The notes under the pieces: model-generated
Databases searched by the model: none
The model's input: the letters and a program-made list of their open reading frames with translations, nothing else
Told to the model about the DNA's origin: nothing
Program-made: the position numbers and the translations under genes
Assembly (NCBI GenBank): GCA_022566355.1
Contig: JADFJB010000140.1
Span: forward strand, 1 to 11,499
Direction: 5' to 3'
DNA from: a candidate division KSB1 bacterium
Lineage (GTDB): Bacteria; Zhuqueibacterota; JdFR-76; DREG01
Length of the DNA: 11,499 nt
Part shown: positions 1 to 10,183 of the stretch, piece by piece
How the letters are laid out: each line of letters opens with the position of its first letter
How positions within the stretch are numbered: position 1 is the first letter of the stretch

Positions 1-523
1 TGCCCCGGTTCGCAACGACGATATCGGGAAGACCATCATTATTCAGGTCTACGACGTTTGCGTTTCGGGTAGGCCAATCAGCGCGACCGAATTTCGGACC
101 AGCCTGGAAGAATCCCTTGCCGTCGTTCAAGTACACGAGATTCGAATCCGGCCTGTCGTTACTGACGATTACATCCAGGTCGCCATCGCCATCGATATCG
201 GCGAGTCGTCCGGAATAGGACCGATTTGCGACGGTCCCAAGATCATATGATCTTATAACGCCGCCTTTACCATCGCCAAGGAGCACACGATTGACCAGCG
301 GCCAATGGCGCCCTTTTGCTAAAATGATATCGAGATTTCCGTCCCCATCAAGGTCTCCAAACGCAACATTAGCCGAAGTTTCAGAAGTGGTTTCAAGGAT
401 TACGGTGCGATCGTATCGTGGAAGATTCCCTGGTTTCGATATGTCGTTTACTTGTGCCTGCAAAGGCGTCTGTGCCGCAGCCAGGAGAACAAGAATTATT
501 GCGAGGAACGGTTTTCTAATCAT
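1..523 (-). CDS. Exported FG-GAP/VCBS repeat protein, N-terminal 174 residues (3' end outside window)
   Basis: Reading from the ATG at 523, the minus strand stays open to the window edge and gives 174 residues. Residues 1-23 form a signal peptide: MIRK, then a hydrophobic core rich in I, L and A, with likely cleavage after LQA before QVND. Three FG-GAP/VCBS units follow, each with a Ca2+-binding-type Asp loop: DLDGDGNLD (57-65), DIDGDGDLD (109-117) and DLNNDGLPD (159-167). Such units build extracellular beta-propellers that bind Ca2+ and often ligands or integrin-like partners, so this is a secreted or surface protein of unknown target. An AGGA Shine-Dalgarno-like site lies 9 nt upstream of the ATG. 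A copy of the dispersed repeat (from 538) starts just upstream and may carry its promoter. The C-terminus is not visible, so a sorting domain or catalytic domain cannot be judged. Confidence 0.9.
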   Translation of the reverse strand, partial: MIRKPFLAIILVLLAAAQTPLQAQVNDISKPGNLPRYDRTVILETTSETSANVAFGDLDGDGNLDIILAKGRHWPLVNRVLLGDGKGGVIRSYDLGTVANRSYSGRLADIDGDGDLDVIVSNDRPDSNLVYLNDGKGFFQAGPKFGRADWPTRNANVVDLNNDGLPDIVVANRG

Positions 524-537
524 ACAAGTTAATCCTA

Positions 538-660
538 TTGGTTTTGCAAATAACCATCCTGAGAAATTTTGTTCATTAATGTAAAATATTTTTTTCCAAA
601 AGCAAACCAAAGAAACCTGGTTTTCGGCGGCATTCGTTTCTTTTTGGATTTATTATTTTT
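538..660. repeat. Dispersed intergenic repeat, copy 1 (modules A and C)
   Basis: Module A is the 18-nt string TTGGTTTTGCAAATAACC at 538-555, identical to 1758-1775. Module C at 567-614 shares 26 consecutive identical bases with the start of 8004-8050 and then continues at high similarity (CCAAAAGCAAACCAAAGAA against CCAAAAGCAACCAAAGAA). Weaker similarity (GCATTCGTTTCTTTTT against GCAATCGTTTCGTTTTT) extends to about 660. The roughly 90 bp central module present in the other two copies is missing here. The end points are estimates by eye. Confidence 0.75.
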
Positions 661-768
661 TGATGCGAAGTAATATTGAAAAAGTTAGAAACAATTATCA
701 TTGTATTCTTCGATGAACTGCCCGGTGCGGACCCGCATTACGGGTGGGGTGGGTGGAAAAATACTCAT

Positions 769-900
769 TTAGGAATTTTTGCTTTCCTCTTGAGACCCCA
801 TCTCAATTCGCAATGGCAGGTCGGTCATTGCATAGTGAATGAATTGCTGACCCAGTCCTGTAAGTTCGTATAAATCGTCTTGATCAATAGCTGACTTCAT
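769..900 (-). CDS. Small hypothetical protein or C-terminal gene fragment
   Basis: From an ATG at 900 the minus strand encodes 43 residues containing LYELTGLGQQFIHYAMTDLP, ending in a TAA at 769-771. The composition looks like real protein. The same frame is open without a stop back to 1017 (82 codons in all), reading a basic, Ser/Lys-rich stretch (VKPKSKSSSQGG), but that extension has no ATG. The best reading is the C-terminal remnant of a longer gene whose 5' part has been lost or replaced by the upstream pRiA4b-like gene, which ends at 990 in another frame. An independent microprotein starting at 900 is the alternative; a GGTGG stretch about 13 nt upstream is too far away to be a convincing ribosome site. 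I do not recognise the family. Confidence 0.45.
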   Translation of the reverse strand: MKSAIDQDDLYELTGLGQQFIHYAMTDLPLRIEMGSQEESKNS

Positions 901-989
901 TGTTTTTTTGGTACCACCTTGTGAGGAAGATTTTGATTTTGGTTTAACTAAAAAATTTCCGTAATAGTCAGTTTCTCTGTGCTGACGAA

Positions 990-1694
990 CTATACTGCAT
1001 GATTTTTCATTACAAAGCTAGTAGATTTATGATATTCAATTAATATTTTGTGGTTATTTTTAGTGTACCTAAGATGAAAAGGCCATTTTCCATCTTTTTT
1101 TTGGGTTCCAGACTCTACATAATCAGGGTTGAATTTATCAGCTTCATATGGATAGTAGTTTTTTGCGTGGCCTTTAAGCCATTCAATATTGTCATTATAT
1201 TCGGAATGGTTAGGGTCATTTAATATTTCAATAAGTTGATAATATCCGGGTACCCCACCGCAATCCTCAGGTGGACATGCGCGTTCACCTGCTATACATA
1301 TTGGGTATTTAGCCTGACTGTCCTTCATGAGAATACTTTCAAGCAGGACATGATGCGACCATTTGTCACCGAAGTCATAATCATAGATAGCAAATTTCCC
1401 AGGGTCTGTGAAATAGTCCTTTACTAAAACCTCCCACCCTGGCAATACCAGATGGTCATAGGATTCTTTATCTGGAATACCTATTTCTGTTTCTTTTTTC
1501 TTGTAGGGCATCCGAACACGGAATGCATGTAGATGATAATCAAGCCAGCCCATTGAATCTTGTATTGCTACGTGCAGATCCCAAAAAGTATATCCAGAGG
1601 GTACTTGTATCACTCTCCAAATAGTTGGTTCTATTTCACTCAACTCAATCCGAAACTGGTAAACTAAATTATCACTAAGCTTATTTATTTTCAT
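990..1694 (-). CDS. Plasmid pRiA4b ORF-3 family protein (IS1096 TnpR-like passenger domain)
   Basis: This 234-residue protein matches the pRiA4b ORF-3 family, named after an Agrobacterium plasmid ORF and related to the passenger protein of IS1096. Landmarks are IEPTIWR (residues 21-27), LHVAIQDSMGW (40-50), YDYDFGDKWSH (104-114) and a Cys-containing CIAGERACPPEDCGG (133-147) followed by YYQLIEILNDP. The biochemical role of the family is not established; members are often found in mobile or accessory regions. I chose the ATG at 1694 over an in-frame ATG at 1727. AGGA lies just upstream of 1694, and the 11 extra residues would be read from the dispersed repeat that begins at about 1698. The last 40 or so residues (from VESGTQ on) are a lysine-rich tail past the usual domain, next to the fragment at 769-1017. 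No transposase is visible beside it. Confidence 0.88.
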   Translation of the reverse strand: MKINKLSDNLVYQFRIELSEIEPTIWRVIQVPSGYTFWDLHVAIQDSMGWLDYHLHAFRVRMPYKKKETEIGIPDKESYDHLVLPGWEVLVKDYFTDPGKFAIYDYDFGDKWSHHVLLESILMKDSQAKYPICIAGERACPPEDCGGVPGYYQLIEILNDPNHSEYNDNIEWLKGHAKNYYPYEADKFNPDYVESGTQKKDGKWPFHLRYTKNNHKILIEYHKSTSFVMKNHAV

Positions 1695-1697
1695 AAT

Positions 1698-1860
1698 TCC
1701 TACTAATAAATAGACCCGCGAAAACAAATGCTAAAACATTCATGATAATGAAACTTGTTGGTTTTGCAAATAACCCTATAAACATCGGAATGGGCGTTTT
1801 ATATTGTGTTTTCATAATATAAAACCATTCGATTTATGGTGTATAATTTATATCCCCGGG
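1698..1860. repeat. Dispersed intergenic repeat, copy 2 (left module, A and B)
   Basis: The unit starts with TCCTACTAATAAAT (1698-1711), like TCCTAACTAATAAAT at 7843-7857. It contains module A at 1758-1775 (identical to 538-555) and module B at 1794-1860. Module B is about 90% identical by eye to 7935-8003. It holds a perfect 9-bp inverted repeat, TTTTATATT (1797-1805) and AATATAAAA (1816-1824), with a 10-nt loop, and ends with TATAATTTATA and a C/G-rich CCCCGGG. Module C is absent. The unit abuts the start of the pRiA4b-like gene and contributes its AGGA. Confidence 0.75.
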
Positions 1861-1922
1861 ATGTGCTATAAACGACTGCTTCATTCGCGGGCGCCTCTTT
1901 TGAAAGTGAGATTATCTTGCCA

Positions 1923-4900
1923 TCAAAACAGATCCATGCTATCTAGCTTTGTCACACAATTATTATATTTTCTTGGCTTGCCCAACTCCTTCCATAATTC
2001 TGCCGCTTTGGCGTACTCGCCGAGCTTTTCATAAGTCTGGGCTATTTTTGCTTTGTTCTTACCCGATTTGACATACATCGCAAGCGCTTTTTCGTAGTTG
2101 TGTGCTTTGTAATAGGCTTCGCCTGCCCTGGTGAACTTCTGGATTTTCTCGAACATCCCGGCCGACTTGCCATACTTTCCCGCAACGTTGTAGTAGTTTG
2201 CCGCGTCAACTAGCAATCCGCGCTGCTCATAGATCTCTGCCAGTTTCAAGAATTCCTTTCTGTGCAGAAGAATTCTGGCCACTTCATAGAACTCGCCTTT
2301 TTCCATCATCATGTCCATGGCTTTGTCGTTGTGCGTAGATTCTGCGAAGATTCGATAGTTATGCTCGGTGATTTGCAATTGCCTTACGATGCGATTGAAG
2401 TCTTCAAACTTGCCCAGAAAATACAGTTTGATAGCAGAGAGCTCAGATATGTCTTTAACCAATTCCGGGTATTCGCGTTTGAATCGTTTTTCCAATTTGG
2501 ACATCGATTGCGGAGCTTCTTCGCGGAGCTCCCGGAGGTATGAGAAGTAGTGATCGTATCGCCGGCTTTTCTCCAGGTAGAATAGTTTCTTATCCTGGAG
2601 TTCGTCCGAAAAGGTAAGCCTTGTTAGGATCTCAACCCACTTCACCATCTCCTTCTCATCGGGGTCCTGTTCGAAATATTTGTCCATAAGAACGACCAGC
2701 GACGATTTATTTTCTAACTGGAACTGATAGTCTATATAATCATAATCATAATAGTAACTGCTAGAAAATGCGTAAGGCGGTTCGCTCAGGAGAAATTCAG
2801 CTGCGACTTTTATGAAATCATGCCTGAGGCAATATGCCGCGATTTTTTCTATTTGATAAGGCTGGTACAGGCATTTCCGCCAGTGGTTTAACGCCTGCTC
2901 GCGCCGGCTATCTTGCAGGGCGCAGCAACCTGCCTGGACATTGTCGTGAGCCAAAGTAAAACAAAGTTCTGCCGCTTCCAGTTGCTGCTGAGTGTGGAGT
3001 TGATGTCCCACATTGATGATGTCAGGCGCTATGACATGTCTGGCTACCCGCCTGGCGTCTGCAAAGTTATTTTGTCTGTCTTCTTCAGATTTGAGATAGT
3101 TCACAAACGCAGCCTTCATATTTTTCAACTTCTGGTAGGCTTTGGCAGCATGGTAATAGTCGTGGGCTAACTCGCAGAACCGGGCCGCTTCCGCAAAGTT
3201 CTTCAATTTGAAATAACTCATCGCCGTTCCATCATGGTCCTTCGCGACATAGTACCTGACCAGCGCTGGAAAATATTTTCGTTTCTCAAAAAAATCGTGC
3301 GCCTGAGAGAGCAGGTCCTCCGAATCTGATAGTTTCTTCACAACCTTGACTGCGTTATCGAAGTCCCTGGCCTTCTCGTATATTTTTAATTGGTTCGAAT
3401 AGTCCCCGGTCTGCTGATAAATTGAAAGCAAGCGATCTTGTCGTTTCAGGTGGCGCCATAGCCTCATGGCGCTGTCGAAGTCCTTAGCCTTTTCAAACAG
3501 CGCGGCCGCCTTTTCCAAATTCTTGAGTTTCTCGTAGAGCACGGCAGATTGCTTAAAGAGGCCGCCTTTTTCATAGTAGTAAGCCGCTTCTTCTTTGTCC
3601 TTGAGTCGCTTGAGACTTACTTCGGCCGCCTGGTCATATATTTTCGCCTTAACCAAAAACTCAAATCCCAGCCGATACGCTTTGCGGGATAGATGAATAT
3701 CCGCCAGTTCTCCAAAGCGGCCCTTCTGTTCCAATAACTTCAGATGACACCGATGCGCGTTTTCTTTACTGTTCGATTTGCTCCATAATAGAAAGGCTTG
3801 TTCGTAGTCTCCACATTTTTCATAATAAGAAGCGGCCTTGTCCAAATCTCCAATCTCTTGAAAACAGTTAGCCGCCAACTGAAAATCCTGTCGCTTTTCG
3901 GCCTCGTAAGCCCTGGCCTTGACCAACAATGTGTCTTCGCCGGCATTTTTGTAACACTCCATTGCCGCTTTGTAGTAACGCCGTTCGAAAAAATAATGCC
4001 CCTGAGTCAGCCATTCGTCGGGTGCGGAGATAACATTCCAGACACTGCTAATGTAGTTGACATCATCGGTGATATAAACTTTATCTCGGATAGGCTCGCT
4101 GCGCCAGATCAACGACGGTTCGGTATCGTCATAAATCAGCAAATCTCTCTGCGCGCGAGTGATGGCGACATAAAGCAGGTTGATTTCATGCTTGATTTTC
4201 GCTTGATGAATGCTTTGGTCGGATTCGGCTATAATGACCTTCCAGATATCTTTCGTACGAACATCGCTGCCAAATTTCCACAGCAACACAGTGTCGAATT
4301 CCAGACCTTTGGCTTCGTTAATAGTAAAAATGAGTTCCGTATCCAGAAGTTCTCTAAGGTACTTTTTCTCTTCCTCTGTGCGCACCAGGATGGTTTTTTT
4401 GGCGCTGGTGCTCCGGATACTCTCCAGAATTGTGGGTTGATCCAAATTCCGGACCACAACGGGCGGCCGTCCTTTGTATTTCCAGTCCTCCTTCGGCTCT
4501 TCGGCACTGCTGCCCAGAAGCTTCGCCTTTAACTCCAAAAGAATGTTGGACAATTCCACAATGCTGCCCGAACTTCTGAAATTCAAGTTGAGAAAATGAA
4601 TGTCCGGTATTTTGAGTTTCCGCTCATAAAAATGGCGTTTCAATTCTTCCCAGCGAAATCCACTGGGATTGATCGTCTGTTTCGTATCGCCACATAAAAG
4701 CAAATTCATCGGATTTCTGACCGTGTAAAAAAGTAGCTCATGTTGCACATCGGTCAAGTCCTGTACCTCGTCACAGACCACCAGGTCATAGCAATGGGTG
4801 TCCGGCTTATGTTCGCTCAATAGTGTCACAACCTCTCTGGTAAGATCCAACTCATCCCACAATCCCTCGCGGTGGAGTCTTTCCTGGTACCATTCGAAAA

Positions 4901-6206
4901 CGCGGTAGAGGTTGTGCCGGTCGAGTTGGAAATTGGGTGCTTTCTTCTTTCCAAGCGCTTCATAATCGACAAAAGAAAGATACTTTTTCTGTGTTAACTC
5001 CCTGGCTTTCGACAAAAGGTTGAAGGTGCGATCAATGACCGTCAACACCCGGTCGCCCTGGGCTTCGACGTAGTGACTAAGATTTCTGGAAAATGTCATG
5101 ATATCGGTTCCAAGATACTTCTGAACAAAGTTCTCCACTTTTTCGAGAGATTTCAATTGTGCGAAGGTGTAAAATTGTTGCTGCAAAGCGCTCAAAAACC
5201 TTGGTTGAACCGGCTTGATTTTCAAACCTACCAAGGCGTTTTTGAGGATGTTGATGTTGATTTGCGGCAGGGCACCTTTGATGATGGAACGAATTTCCTC
5301 CCAGATCAAGGGAGCGTCGTATCCCTTCGCCTGTGGACAGGACAAGATCATCTTACTAAACTTCTCAAAGTCGACCTCTTTCTCTCTTGCAATGCTATTG
5401 TGACATCGCTCCGCGACATCCAGGCAGTATTCCTTAAATGTAAAAAACACAGGATCGAGGTACTCTTCTCTTAATGGGCTGGTATTCAACAAGCCATGGT
5501 ATAGTTTCCGCGCTGCGTTTTTCAAATGGTGATTGTAGGTGATGAACAGTTTTTTCTTTTTTGCCAGCGGTAGTTTCAGCAGGTAATAGATGCCGAGGGT
5601 GGTCTTACCGCTGCCAGCGGTGCCAGAGACTAAGGTCGGTAAAGGTTGGTTTAAGACTGCCTGCTGCTTTGGCGTTAGGTAGAGCTGCAACTCGAATGTA
5701 TCTTCCTGGTGATCTTGAATACGCCCCCAACTCTCTTCGTCCAGGAGATGCCATCTTTGGGTTGCGGAATCATCTGATATTTTCTGGGTAATGCTCTCTT
5801 GCGTAAAGTAAGCTGCATCCAGATTTTCCAGTGAGATTTCACCTATGGATTCTTCATGGTAGGGTTTGAATTGCAGGAAAGGAACGTTGCCTGGGAGGAT
5901 GCCTTTAGTTTTCCGGCTCACCCGGTCGTGCACAACAATGCCCCAAATGTAGACCAGTAAGGCGCCGGAGGATGCGCCATTTTCCTCTTCATGCCCCACC
6001 GTAAAGAGGATACGGTTAGCACGGTCGAGTCTGGCCTCGAAAACGACCTTCTGCCCTGCCAGGCTCTTGAGTTTCTTGACATTCAAACCGCCATCCCAGT
6101 ACCCGATCTCCAAATACTCAATCTTCTGCCGCAATTTCTTCCGGTAGGTATGAGGCTGGGAGAGCATATACTTCTTGAAGGAATCGTTGATAAGAACCTT
6201 GATCAT
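1923..6206 (-). CDS. Giant RelE-like / UvrD-type SF1 helicase / TPR-repeat fusion protein
   Basis: This is a 1427-residue cytoplasmic protein with three parts. (1) Residues 1-98 look like a RelE/ParE toxin fold: a basic helical segment, KKLKSLAG, then VVFEARLDRANRILFTV and a final LVYIWGIVVHDRV strand. (2) Residues 175-700 are a complete UvrD/Rep-like superfamily 1 helicase: Q-motif LTPKQQAVL (177-185), Walker A GTAGSGKTT (195-203), Ia FITYNHHL (221-228), Walker B/II CDEVQD (478-483), III CGDTKQTI (505-512), IV LNFRSS (541-546), V EAKGLEFDTVLL (631-642) and VI VAITRAQRD (680-688). All catalytic residues are present, so ATP-dependent nucleic-acid translocation is expected. (3) Residues 734-1110 and 1255-1410 are degenerate TPR-like helical pairs (YEKAKDFDSA, YYEKCGDYEQA, YEKLGEYAKAAELWKEL), probably a protein-binding scaffold. 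There is no signal peptide or membrane segment. No clear Shine-Dalgarno site precedes the ATG. Its role is unknown; defence is an inference. Confidence 0.9.
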   Translation of the reverse strand: MIKVLINDSFKKYMLSQPHTYRKKLRQKIEYLEIGYWDGGLNVKKLKSLAGQKVVFEARLDRANRILFTVGHEEENGASSGALLVYIWGIVVHDRVSRKTKGILPGNVPFLQFKPYHEESIGEISLENLDAAYFTQESITQKISDDSATQRWHLLDEESWGRIQDHQEDTFELQLYLTPKQQAVLNQPLPTLVSGTAGSGKTTLGIYYLLKLPLAKKKKLFITYNHHLKNAARKLYHGLLNTSPLREEYLDPVFFTFKEYCLDVAERCHNSIAREKEVDFEKFSKMILSCPQAKGYDAPLIWEEIRSIIKGALPQININILKNALVGLKIKPVQPRFLSALQQQFYTFAQLKSLEKVENFVQKYLGTDIMTFSRNLSHYVEAQGDRVLTVIDRTFNLLSKARELTQKKYLSFVDYEALGKKKAPNFQLDRHNLYRVFEWYQERLHREGLWDELDLTREVVTLLSEHKPDTHCYDLVVCDEVQDLTDVQHELLFYTVRNPMNLLLCGDTKQTINPSGFRWEELKRHFYERKLKIPDIHFLNLNFRSSGSIVELSNILLELKAKLLGSSAEEPKEDWKYKGRPPVVVRNLDQPTILESIRSTSAKKTILVRTEEEKKYLRELLDTELIFTINEAKGLEFDTVLLWKFGSDVRTKDIWKVIIAESDQSIHQAKIKHEINLLYVAITRAQRDLLIYDDTEPSLIWRSEPIRDKVYITDDVNYISSVWNVISAPDEWLTQGHYFFERRYYKAAMECYKNAGEDTLLVKARAYEAEKRQDFQLAANCFQEIGDLDKAASYYEKCGDYEQAFLLWSKSNSKENAHRCHLKLLEQKGRFGELADIHLSRKAYRLGFEFLVKAKIYDQAAEVSLKRLKDKEEAAYYYEKGGLFKQSAVLYEKLKNLEKAAALFEKAKDFDSAMRLWRHLKRQDRLLSIYQQTGDYSNQLKIYEKARDFDNAVKVVKKLSDSEDLLSQAHDFFEKRKYFPALVRYYVAKDHDGTAMSYFKLKNFAEAARFCELAHDYYHAAKAYQKLKNMKAAFVNYLKSEEDRQNNFADARRVARHVIAPDIINVGHQLHTQQQLEAAELCFTLAHDNVQAGCCALQDSRREQALNHWRKCLYQPYQIEKIAAYCLRHDFIKVAAEFLLSEPPYAFSSSYYYDYDYIDYQFQLENKSSLVVLMDKYFEQDPDEKEMVKWVEILTRLTFSDELQDKKLFYLEKSRRYDHYFSYLRELREEAPQSMSKLEKRFKREYPELVKDISELSAIKLYFLGKFEDFNRIVRQLQITEHNYRIFAESTHNDKAMDMMMEKGEFYEVARILLHRKEFLKLAEIYEQRGLLVDAANYYNVAGKYGKSAGMFEKIQKFTRAGEAYYKAHNYEKALAMYVKSGKNKAKIAQTYEKLGEYAKAAELWKELGKPRKYNNCVTKLDSMDLF

Positions 6207-6274
6207 AGTTTCGTGTCAATCGCTTTCTTGTTTTTAGTAAGGAAAACGTCGATGAGCCGGTATTATGTGACAGT

Positions 6275-6303
6275 AATGTAATCAAACTTGAAGTGAATAT
6301 CAA
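6275..6303 (-). promoter_or_regulatory. Candidate promoter of the helicase gene
   Basis: On the minus strand TTGATA (6303-6298) and TACATT (6280-6275) are separated by exactly 17 nt, a sigma-70-like arrangement about 70 nt upstream of the helicase ATG at 6206. It sits inside a pair of nested inverted repeats, described in the findings. If the host is a Bacteroidota-like organism its housekeeping promoters may look different, which lowers confidence. Confidence 0.35.
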
Positions 6304-6479
6304 GACGACATTACCACAAAACTCGTCTCTTCTCCGCATTTCACATTGTGTAAAAAGTCAGGGGGCGTTAGTCGAATGATTACAAAATAACGTGTGTTTA
6401 AGAATAAATAGTAATGAATTGTCAAATTCTGATTATAAAGTCATTTGGTTGTCATTAACTGAATGAATGAAATAAATTA

Positions 6480-6684: not shown

Positions 6685-7023
6685 TTAGTCTGAAACAATT
6701 CTTCTTAAGGTTTTAACTACAAAATTATTTAGGCTCACACCTTCATTCAATGCACGGACCGCTAAAGCTTGATGTAGGTCAGGGTCAGTGCGCAGTACAA
6801 ATTTTCCAGAATATTTTTTACCGGCAGTGGCTGATGGAAGAGGGCGACCATCTTTTTTGTAAATCTCAATCCACTCATCCACAATTTGACAAAGCTCTTG
6901 GTAGACTTTCGTTTCATCTTCACCATGACAACATTTTCCTATCCAACCTGGGACAGAACCCACATAGCACTGATCTTCTTCAGACCACTCCACTAATTTT
7001 AAATATTTATCTCTTTCTTTCAT
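6685..7023 (-). CDS. hicB: HicB-family antitoxin
   Basis: This 112-residue protein has the two-part HicB layout. The N-terminal degenerate RNase H-like domain (about residues 8-60) contains VEWSEEDQCYVGSVPGW and GEDETKVYQELCQIVDEWI, the typical 'envelope' sequence. The C-terminal part (71-110) is a ribbon-helix-helix/HicB-like DNA-binding segment, GKFVLRTDPDLHQALAVRA followed by LNEGVSLNNFVVKTL. In this family HicB neutralises the HicA mRNA interferase and represses its own operon through the C-terminal domain. GGAAG lies 7 nt before the ATG, inside the end of the preceding hicA frame, and only 2 nt separate the hicA stop from this ATG, so translation is probably coupled. The gene is full length, whereas its hicA partner appears broken. 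Confidence is high for the family and lower for present-day antitoxin activity. Confidence 0.88.
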   Translation of the reverse strand: MKERDKYLKLVEWSEEDQCYVGSVPGWIGKCCHGEDETKVYQELCQIVDEWIEIYKKDGRPLPSATAGKKYSGKFVLRTDPDLHQALAVRALNEGVSLNNFVVKTLRRIVSD

Positions 7024-8506: not shown

Positions 8507-10183
8507 TTATTTGAGTAATAATAGTTTCTTCACCTTTAAGAATCGCTCTTTTCCTCCCACGACTTCTGCAACTATTTGATAAATGTAAATTCCGTTTGAA
8601 ACTGCTCTGCCTTGACGATCTTTCCCATTCCAAACAACTTGATGATAACCGCCAGGCTTTTCTTCATCAACTAAACGGACAACTTCTCGCCCCAAAATAT
8701 CATAGATAATCAGAGAAACTTTGCTGGCTTTGGGGGAATCAAATCGAATGGTCGTCGTCGGATTAAACGGATTCGGATAATTTTGTCCGAGAGAGAATTC
8801 TTCAGGTATGGGATTGACTTCTTCAACGTCCAAGACGGGAGATTGCGGAGTTTGAAATTCATTTTTCGTGGCACTTGCAGTGGTATCAGTACCATCCGTT
8901 GCTTTGATATGCCATGTATAAAGCGTCTCAAATTGAAGATAATTGTTGCCACCGAAAACCAACACGGTATCGTTTAAGCCAGAAATGGTCGTATCCAAAC
9001 CTGCGCCGAAAAGATTGAAGATGTACTGAATTTCATCCCCTGCATCAACATCCAGCGACTTTTGCCATACAAATGAGATCAGCAAGTTGTCCACAGTACC
9101 GCCAACTGCCGGTGATATTAAATCAAAAACTGCCGGCGGATCATTACCAGGAATAACCGTTACCATAAATGTATCGCTAACACTTGCGGCACTAACATCC
9201 CTTGCTGTTACAATAATGGTTGAAACACCGTTTGAATCGCTGACAGAATTAATTTCCAGAAGGCTGCCGATAACATCTGCTGTTACCAAATCATTGGATA
9301 CAGATACACTGTACACTAAGCTATCTCCAAAGGGTACATCAACATCATCAAATACAGTGTCCAAGTCTGCAACGATTACACTGTTGAAATCTTCACTTAC
9401 TGTTAGATCAATAATTGAGTTTGTCGTAGTTGGCGCAGTATTGGATATTATGTCAAATTCGTGAACGAATTCTAAACTTCTTCCCCCATTGGCGTCCTTT
9501 GCATAGGCATGTATGTTGTAGGTCTTATCCGGATTTAAATGGGATAGATCAACAGGAAAGTCGGTATCAACTCTATCGGATGGCGGGAAATCCGTATATG
9601 TGAAAACCTGAGAATCTATTGTATCACTGCTAAAAAACCACTCGATAGAAACGATATCCGGTGACGCATCTAAACTCGATGTTGCTTCTTTTAAAAAAGG
9701 TCGTGCATAGGTTAAACTCCAACTGCTATTGGCATCTTGCGACCGAACATAGAGGATATGAAACCCATTATCCACACTAGTCAAATCCACGGAAAAAAGT
9801 TTTGTAATATTGCTGGTAGTAGAAAGTGAAATATCTACACCCTTTCCATAGCCCGGATCGGTGTCAATGAAGTATTCCATTTTTATAATATTCGGCGGGG
9901 GTTCGCGGCTCGCGGTTCCTTTGAAAAACGGTTTGGGATAAGTTGGACTCCATCTGCCAGAATCGTCTTTTGCTCGTATGTATAAAATGTGAAATCCGTC
10001 GCTAACCTCTGCCAAACCCACACTAAAGCTGAATTCCAGACTGGAATCTGGTATCGTAATGCTTACCTGTGTTCCGTTTCCGTATCCAGGGGTTGTATCG
10101 ATAAAATACTCGATTTGCACAATACTTTGTGCATAAAGTCCCTGGTAAAAAAACAGAATAAATAACATGGTTATTTTTTTCAT
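8507..10183 (-). CDS. Exported multidomain protein with T9SS type A sorting domain
   Basis: This 558-residue protein starts with a signal peptide (1-18, MKKITMLFILFFYQGLYA before QSIV). Residues 21-88 and 98-166 are two homologous modules sharing EYFIDT-PGYG-G at the front and DGFHILYVR, then W-TY-PF at the back. Residues 177-245 are a degenerate third copy (IEWFFSSD, VDLSHLNPDKTY). A cadherin/Ig-like domain (about 247-346, with a PTTTNSIIDLTVSEDF start) and a fibronectin-III-like domain (about 347-445) follow. The end (466-558) is a T9SS type A sorting domain: NYPNPFNPTTTIRF, YDILGREV, GGYHQVVWNGKD, VSNGIYIYQI. In the type IX pathway this tail takes proteins across the outer membrane and is then removed or linked to the surface. 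AGGA lies 4 nt before the ATG. The gene starts 32 bp after the beta-helix gene, so the two are probably one operon. Ligand or activity is unknown; an adhesin or surface-matrix role is an inference. Confidence 0.9.
   Translation of the reverse strand: MKKITMLFILFFYQGLYAQSIVQIEYFIDTTPGYGNGTQVSITIPDSSLEFSFSVGLAEVSDGFHILYIRAKDDSGRWSPTYPKPFFKGTASREPPPNIIKMEYFIDTDPGYGKGVDISLSTTSNITKLFSVDLTSVDNGFHILYVRSQDANSSWSLTYARPFLKEATSSLDASPDIVSIEWFFSSDTIDSQVFTYTDFPPSDRVDTDFPVDLSHLNPDKTYNIHAYAKDANGGRSLEFVHEFDIISNTAPTTTNSIIDLTVSEDFNSVIVADLDTVFDDVDVPFGDSLVYSVSVSNDLVTADVIGSLLEINSVSDSNGVSTIIVTARDVSAASVSDTFMVTVIPGNDPPAVFDLISPAVGGTVDNLLISFVWQKSLDVDAGDEIQYIFNLFGAGLDTTISGLNDTVLVFGGNNYLQFETLYTWHIKATDGTDTTASATKNEFQTPQSPVLDVEEVNPIPEEFSLGQNYPNPFNPTTTIRFDSPKASKVSLIIYDILGREVVRLVDEEKPGGYHQVVWNGKDRQGRAVSNGIYIYQIVAEVVGGKERFLKVKKLLLLK

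What the first reader, a model, noticed from the sequence alone, without database searches (positions are those of the whole stretch)
1923..6206. RelE-like domain fused to a full UvrD helicase and a very long TPR tail
One 1427-residue polypeptide joins a toxin-fold-like N-terminus, all SF1A helicase motifs with intact catalytic residues, and roughly 650 residues of TPR-like repeats. Seen in sequence: the motifs and their order. Known: UvrD-type helicases act in several anti-phage systems (for example GajB of Gabija), and RelE-fold enzymes cut mRNA. Inference: the repeats may sense or bind a partner, the helicase may act on foreign nucleic acid, and the RelE-like part may be an effector or a nucleic-acid-binding adaptor. 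The overall plan recalls eukaryotic TRANK1 (helicase plus repeats). Its position beside a hicAB remnant and a pRiA4b-type gene fits an accessory defence-type locus.
Basis: partly seen in the sequence, partly recalled or inferred. Interest (0 to 1): 0.72.

Follow-up and report, generated by a model that had tools for sequence, protein, structure and literature searches.

The report
RelE toxin fold fused to helicase
One large bacterial protein joins an RNA-cutting-toxin fold, a DNA/RNA motor and a long protein-binding tail; relatives are scattered across many bacterial phyla and on plasmids, and it may be an undescribed built-in-trigger defence or stress protein.

Summary
The 1,427-residue ORF is real, intact and on the minus strand (6206 down to 1923). 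Its first ~100 residues have the RelE/YoeB toxin fold: the predicted structure's 50 best structural matches are all RelE/YoeB/HigB/YafQ/ParE family or the CRISPR nuclease Cami1. Residues ~173-720 are a UvrD-type SF1 helicase with all motifs intact. The rest is a TPR-like solenoid. The same three-part plan occurs in about 70 loci. A sister family keeps the RelE-UvrD core but carries ankyrin repeats, on plasmids and in E. coli genomic islands. The family is accessory: 7 of 82 genomes in the window's phylum, 3/291 cyanobacteria, 15/248 spirochaetes, usually single-copy, with signs of transfer between phyla and broken copies. No antitoxin or conserved partner gene was found. Defence-gene enrichment near it was not shown. 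Most likely it is a self-contained sensor (tail), motor (helicase) and translation-blocking effector (RelE) used in conflict with mobile elements. This is inferred; no function was tested. I found no published description of this plan in the papers I could search. It is a new variant of known RNase-helicase and toxin-fusion defence proteins.

The parts
1923..6206 (-). Whole gene: RelE-like domain, UvrD-type helicase, TPR-like tail (1,427 aa)
   Evidence: 71 homologous ORFs
5895..6206 (-). RelE/YoeB-fold domain (residues 1-104); at least 90% conserved K44, K45, E57, R59, R65, F68, H93, D94
5691..5894 (-). Linker between RelE-like domain and helicase (residues 105-172)
   Evidence: conserved tryptophan W152
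4047..5690 (-). UvrD-type SF1 helicase core (residues 173-720), without a full 2B domain
   Evidence: UvrD 4c2t, Z 31.2, rmsd 4.8, 412 aligned
5598..5630 (-). Helicase motif I / Walker A, residues 193-203 (SGTAGSGKTT)
   Evidence: invariant G195, A197, G198, G200, K201, T202
5274..5303 (-). Family signature WEEIRSIIKG (residues 302-311)
   Evidence: R306, K310, G311 invariant; used to find relatives
4758..4778 (-). Helicase motif II / Walker B, VCDEVQD (residues 477-483)
   Evidence: D479, E480, Q482, D483 invariant
4641..4694 (-). Motif III and family signature, CGDTKQTINPSGFRWEEL region (residues 505-522)
   Evidence: D507, Q510, P514, F517 invariant
4278..4316 (-). Motif V, EAKGLEFDTVLLW (residues 631-643)
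   Evidence: K633, G634, E636, F637 invariant
4152..4181 (-). Motif VI, NLLYVAITRA (residues 676-685)
   Evidence: R684 invariant
1926..4004 (-). TPR-like alpha-solenoid tail (residues 735-1427), evolving fastest towards the C-terminus

Best explanation
It is a self-contained accessory protein in which the repeat tail binds or senses a partner, the UvrD-type helicase acts as an ATP-driven motor or switch on nucleic acid, and the RelE-fold domain is the effector, most likely cutting ribosome-bound mRNA (or otherwise blocking translation) once the motor is engaged. Because no antitoxin accompanies it, the RelE domain would be held inactive by the rest of the polypeptide until triggered, for instance by a phage or plasmid product or an invading nucleic acid. 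Shown here: the three domains, their conservation, retained residues at RelE/YoeB active-site positions, absence of a conserved partner gene, patchy and horizontally mobile distribution, and replacement of the tail by ankyrin repeats in a sister family. Inferred: that RelE is an active nuclease, that the tail is the sensor, and that the biological role is conflict with mobile elements.
For: RelE fold. Aligned with YoeB proteins, R59 and R65 fall on the YoeB arginines and H93 on the YoeB terminal histidine; by my own hand alignment R65 also falls on RelE R61, listed as an active-site residue in PMC3482391. The RelE domain is as conserved as the helicase (58% v 61% within the clade; 44% v 40% to spirochaetes), while the tail beyond residue 950 falls to 34-36% and 15-23%: stable effector and motor, fast-changing tail. 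A two-domain model of 735 residues gives pTM 0.85, compatible with RelE docked on the motor. Accessory distribution: 7/82, 3/291 and 15/248 genomes, one copy in most genomes. Deltaproteobacterial, Fidelibacterota and Pseudomonadota members nest among spirochaetes, with helicases 73-78% identical between phyla. Plasmid copies. Ankyrin-tailed relatives keep the RelE-like N-terminus (hhalign 95.5%, E 1.6e-8; hmmsearch 7.5e-7 Methylosinus and 7e-9 Cetobacterium) and sit in E. coli islands as cargo, with remnants and a frameshifted copy. Precedents for design: Cami1 (RelE effector plus sensor) and Schlafens (RNase plus SF1 helicase).
Against: No function was tested. No defence-island signal: neighbours are mostly ordinary genes, and PADLOC hits are scattered apart from seven DUF4143 ATPases (v control 102). 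RelE's second arginine (R81) and tyrosine (Y87) positions are not conserved as such, and YoeB's glutamate position is lysine (K44), so catalysis could be lost. No match in phages or viral contigs. hhalign of the RelE profile against 12 YoeB sequences was not significant.
Confidence: 0.42

Rival explanations
1. Stress or ribosome-rescue helicase: the RelE fold is a non-toxic adaptor that docks on the ribosomal A site (or on RNA polymerase), and the helicase clears stalled complexes, with the tail recruiting clients. No conflict role.
For: Helicase folds nearest UvrD/PcrA and also matches the RNA-polymerase-binding HelD (Z 24.6 for 8q3i). Some catalytic RelE positions are changed. Neighbours are ordinary genes.
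Against: Found in only 1-9% of genomes of its groups, on plasmids and islands, with broken copies; housekeeping rescue factors are rarely so patchy.
Confidence: 0.25
2. Element-serving protein: carried by plasmids and islands to help their own maintenance, transfer or competition with rival elements rather than to protect the cell from phage.
For: Ankyrin-tailed relatives cover at least 80% of the query in 125 plasmid records and lie in E. coli islands behind Gp2-like and HTH genes; TPR forms occur on two cyanobacterial plasmids, both close to partition genes.
Against: Most TPR-tailed members, including this one, are chromosomal or on contigs without visible mobility genes.
Confidence: 0.18
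3. ParE-like domain: the RelE fold has lost nuclease activity and binds a protein target (ParE inhibits gyrase), with the helicase acting on DNA.
For: ParE structures share the fold (6x0a Z 7.9, 3kxe Z 7.7); ParE-like Pfam hits in 5 of 65.
Against: Nuclease-type relatives rank higher (RelE, YoeB, YafQ Z 9-10), and charged residues and a histidine at their active-site positions are conserved at 90% or more.
Confidence: 0.1

Closest known systems
RelE/YoeB/HigB toxins (BECR-fold, type II toxin-antitoxin)
   Same: Fold and strand order; arginine (R65) and histidine (H93) at YoeB/RelE active-site positions
   Different: Not a small stand-alone toxin, no antitoxin gene beside it, embedded at the start of a 1,427-aa helicase protein, some catalytic positions changed
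GajB and other UvrD/PcrA SF1A helicases
   Same: All helicase motifs; best PADLOC hits are GajB models (5.9e-15); structure nearest D. radiodurans UvrD (Z 31.2)
   Different: No GajA (OLD nuclease) partner seen, 2B domain reduced, RelE domain in front and repeat tail behind, own signatures WEEIRSIIKG and INPSGFRWEEL
Schlafen group III (SLFN11, SLFN14)
   Same: Works-like: an RNase-type domain followed by an SF1 helicase in one chain; helicase parts superpose (Z 21-22)
   Different: Different RNase fold, animal proteins, no TPR or ankyrin tail; no common ancestry of the whole plan shown
Cami1 (CARF-RelE, type III CRISPR effector)
   Same: RelE-fold effector joined to a sensing module; RelE part matches at Z 8.1
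   Different: Sensor is a cyclic-nucleotide CARF domain, no helicase, CRISPR-linked
Eukaryotic TRANK1-type proteins (from memory, not compared)
   Same: UvrD-type helicase with TPR and ankyrin repeats
   Different: No RelE domain is known to me there; no eukaryotic sequence was available for comparison
Ankyrin-tailed RelE-UvrD proteins of E. coli, Methylosinus and Thermus plasmids (annotated only as UvrD-helicase, AAA ATPase or ankyrin proteins)
   Same: Same RelE-UvrD core
   Different: Ankyrin instead of TPR tail, ~920-970 aa; separate side of the tree

Membership tests
RelE/ParE (BECR) superfamily domain | RelE fold | tested here: met
   all 50 best VIA matches are of this superfamily or its fusions
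RelE/ParE (BECR) superfamily domain | Sequence similarity to family profiles | tested here: met
   HigB-like, YoeB (2.6e-5), Gp49, ParE-like recur in homologues; weak (E 0.16) for the window sequence alone
RelE/YoeB ribosome-dependent mRNases | Full catalytic residue set | tested here: inconclusive
   R59, R65, H93 positions kept; RelE R81/Y87 and YoeB E46 positions changed
RelE/YoeB ribosome-dependent mRNases | mRNA cleavage in the ribosomal A site | not testable with these tools
   needs biochemistry
Type II toxin-antitoxin module | Antitoxin gene or domain alongside the toxin | tested here: not met
   no conserved neighbour across lineages; HicB gene next to the window gene is not shared by relatives
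UvrD/PcrA SF1A helicase | Motifs I-VI with catalytic residues | tested here: met
UvrD/PcrA SF1A helicase | 1A/1B/2A/2B domain layout | tested here: inconclusive
   core superposes (Z 31.2), but only ~120 aa lie between motifs III and V, so 2B is reduced or absent
Gabija system | GajA-type OLD/TOPRIM nuclease beside the helicase | tested here: not met
   no such ORF in this window and no conserved neighbour in relatives
TPR protein | TPR-like repeat solenoid | tested here: met
   tail profile to designed TPRs 7.7e-27; cyanobacterial members score TPR_1 at 1.8e-115
Known anti-phage defence system in PADLOC-DB | Full-length match to a defence protein model | tested here: not met
   only partial helicase matches (GajB, RTasHel)
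TRANK1 family | Homology to eukaryotic TRANK1 helicase | not tested
   no eukaryotic sequences available

The most novel reading that the evidence does not exclude
A widespread, undescribed class of one-gene bacterial immune receptors in which a UvrD helicase replaces the usual STAND-type ATPase: RelE effector, helicase switch, interchangeable TPR or ankyrin sensor. It would need no antitoxin and would be a bacterial counterpart of Schlafen- or TRANK1-type helicases.
Probability: 0.25. Interest if true: 0.85.

Novelty: new variant of a known kind. Interest (0 to 1): 0.6.

Why it matters
An RNA-cutting-toxin fold has been overlooked in proteins annotated merely as 'UvrD-helicase', 'ankyrin repeat protein' or 'hypothetical'. 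The core occurs in many bacterial phyla and one archaeal metagenome bin (Heimdallarchaeota), and about 2% of complete E. coli genomes hold at least part of an ankyrin-tailed version, so it can be tested in a laboratory strain. It gives a concrete case for how a RelE-type toxin can be kept safe without an antitoxin, and whether helicases can serve as the switch in single-gene immune proteins. Gerdes (PMC11980606) set aside multidomain RelE proteins that lack antitoxins; this family falls in that gap.

Tried and rejected
Defence-island argument: PADLOC and Pfam scans of 211 neighbours against 147 proteins from random regions of the same genomes gave no convincing enrichment; only DUF4143 ATPases (PDC-S01) recur (7 v 0). 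Conserved partner or antitoxin: none across lineages; shared neighbours occur only among close cyanobacteria. Phage or viral carriers: none. Profile-profile match of the RelE domain to 12 spirochaete YoeB sequences: probability 0.1%, E 0.5, so the fold assignment rests on structure and on Pfam hits of homologues. Sequence search of solved structures with the RelE profile: only borderline hits (YoeB 0.15-0.2, RelE3 0.5). A plant 'inhibitor of virus replication' with TPRs looked like a lead but derives from APC7. Literature searches for a RelE-UvrD fusion found none; the library is open-access only. Small ORFs overlapping the gene (e.g. 6118-6339) have no credible family match. No Rfam hit or tRNA in the window.
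Full report
WHAT IS THERE. The window (a whole contig, C140, of a 4.6 Mb, 98.5% complete genome) contains one 1,427-residue ORF at 1923-6206 on the minus strand, ATG start, uninterrupted, one copy in the genome. The nearest relative is from a Caldithrix MAG (70% identity); others are candidate division KSB1. Pfam finds the UvrD N-terminal domain at 180-512, UvrD_C at 622-691 and borderline TPRs behind.

THE RelE PART. Pfam does not call residues 1-110 in the window protein. In 65 homologous N-termini, however, the families hit most often are HigB-like toxin (19), YoeB (18, best 2.6e-5) and Gp49 (15), with ParE-like in 5; [quoted passage not shown] AlphaFold2 with 63 homologues gives pLDDT 82, pTM 0.76 and the RelE order of elements. 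The VIA-align 2 top 50 holds only RelE, YoeB, HigB, YafQ and ParE proteins and the CARF-RelE effector Cami1 (best Z 10.3, 3.0 A over 85 residues, to P. horikoshii RelE); the one Foldseek match under E 0.001 is the same protein. Residues kept in at least 90% of homologues are L32, G40, V43, K44, K45, E57, R59, R65, F68, T69, H93 and D94. Laid on YoeB proteins, R59 and R65 coincide with YoeB arginines, and H93 with the histidine of the terminal HY pair. That the second arginine and the histidine are catalytic in YoeB is from my own knowledge; RelE R61 and R81 as active-site residues are given in PMC3482391. The RelE R81 and Y87 positions and YoeB's glutamate are not preserved. Catalysis is therefore plausible, not shown.

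THE MOTOR. Motifs I, II, III, IV, V and VI are complete, and their catalytic residues are invariant in 55 homologues. Profile search of solved structures gives PcrA (9.8e-22), UvrD, Rep and GajB; structure comparison gives UvrD (Z 31.2, rmsd 4.8, 412 residues), then AddA, HelD, and Schlafens at Z 21-22. Only ~120 residues separate motifs III and V, so the mobile 2B domain of UvrD is reduced or absent. The family has its own signatures, WEEIRSIIKG and GD-x-x-Q-x-INPSGFRWEEL. A model of residues 1-735 has pTM 0.85, compatible with a defined placement of RelE on the motor; inter-domain error was not available.

THE TAIL. About 690 residues of TPR-like solenoid: the profile of 32 tails hits designed TPR proteins (7.7e-27) and intraflagellar-transport solenoids. 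Cyanobacterial members carry textbook TPRs (TPR_1 1.8e-115). Conservation falls from the helicase and RelE domain to the tail end: 61, 58 and 36% within the clade, and 40, 44 and 15-23% to spirochaetes.

FAMILY AND SPREAD. One scan of 84,980 genomes gave 77 loci; 71 ORFs across Calditrichota/KSB1, Ignavibacteria, Aminicenantes, Acidobacteria, Spirochaetes, Deltaproteobacteria, Cyanobacteria, a Heimdallarchaeota bin and Fusobacteria start with the RelE-like domain. Frequencies are 7 of 82 in the window's phylum (one of them a divergent helicase with another N-terminus), 3 of 291 in the cyanobacterial class and 15 of 248 in the spirochaete class, with one copy in most carriers. In the tree, Desulfobacteraceae, Syntrophaceae and Neomarinimicrobia members nest among spirochaetes, with helicases 73-78% identical between phyla. 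This points to horizontal transfer, though metagenome bins can hold stray contigs. Some copies are split over frames (e.g. L056, L086).

THE TAIL IS REPLACED IN RELATIVES. Proteins on Methylosinus, Thermus and E. coli plasmids and in a Fusobacteriaceae MAG have the same RelE-UvrD core followed by ankyrin repeats. Their N-termini match the RelE profile (hhalign 95.5%, E 1.6e-8 for the group; hmmsearch 7e-9 for Cetobacterium and 7.5e-7 for Methylosinus; 0.03 for E. coli and 1.5 for Thermus taken alone). TPR- and ankyrin-tailed forms fall on two sides of the helicase tree, so one tail change suffices. In E. coli 111 of 5,426 genomes have a match, 95 over at least 80% of the gene, 102 of 112 places being chromosomal. 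In the examples read it sits as cargo in islands just behind Gp2-like and small HTH genes, near antirestriction and CbtA/YeeU genes, in one case frameshifted. About 100 Shigella plasmid records carry it too; these were not fetched.

NEIGHBOURHOOD. No gene accompanies the TPR-tailed gene across lineages, and there is no antitoxin. PADLOC hits among 211 neighbours are scattered; the only repeated family is DUF4143 ATPases, 7 against 0 in 147 control proteins. Two cyanobacterial copies are on plasmids, one near DUF262/DUF3696 genes and ParA. No phage or viral contig encodes it.

HOW IT PROBABLY WORKS. Stable effector and motor, a fast-changing or replaced repeat tail, accessory and mobile distribution, and no antitoxin fit a protein that senses through the tail, switches through the helicase and acts through RelE, most simply by cutting mRNA on ribosomes. 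The logic resembles Schlafens (RNase plus SF1 helicase) and Cami1 (sensor plus RelE). I give this 0.42. The main rival, a stress or ribosome-rescue helicase with RelE as docking module, I give 0.25.

NOVELTY. PADLOC-DB has no full-length model. Public annotation calls relatives 'UvrD-helicase', 'AAA family ATPase', 'ankyrin repeat' or 'hypothetical'. Literature searches found no RelE-UvrD fusion, and the recent survey of multidomain RelE proteins excluded those without antitoxins (PMC11980606). Each domain is known; the combination, its spread and the tail replacement are, as far as I could check, undescribed.

Noticed in passing
L119 3152-6064; L120 15049-17898; L121 15049-17894; L122 15001-17913: Ankyrin-tailed RelE-UvrD gene in E. 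coli islands and a conjugative plasmid, directly behind a Gp2-like or hypothetical gene and a small HTH gene; intact and frameshifted copies occur.
   Followed up: yes
L008 (G045:C129), reverse strand, ~133-3951 of the reverse complement: A related SF1 helicase with a long tail in the same phylum has a different N-terminus (MALYVYVTNECKEDAREHAI...) that does not match the RelE profile (E 38); it may be another effector or a far-diverged RelE fold.
   Followed up: partly
neighbours of the family loci: DUF4143/AAA_14 ATPases (PADLOC candidate PDC-S01) make up 7 of 211 genes within three genes of the family gene, against none in 147 random proteins.
   Followed up: partly
window 990-1727 (-): Plasmid pRiA4b ORF-3-like gene (PF07929, 1.1e-57), the only copy in the genome; not conserved beside relatives.
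   Followed up: partly
window 6685-7023 (-): Solitary HicB-type gene (PF05534, 2e-15) upstream of the main gene; no HicA recognised.
   Followed up: partly
window 8507-10183 (-): Secreted protein with FlgD-like/Por secretion tail (type IX secretion-type C-terminus).
   Followed up: no
L106 (G000:C114) and L105 (G095:C23): Stand-alone ~99-aa frames matching the fused-RelE profile (1.3e-4 and 4.2e-6), possible free-standing relatives of the domain.
   Followed up: no
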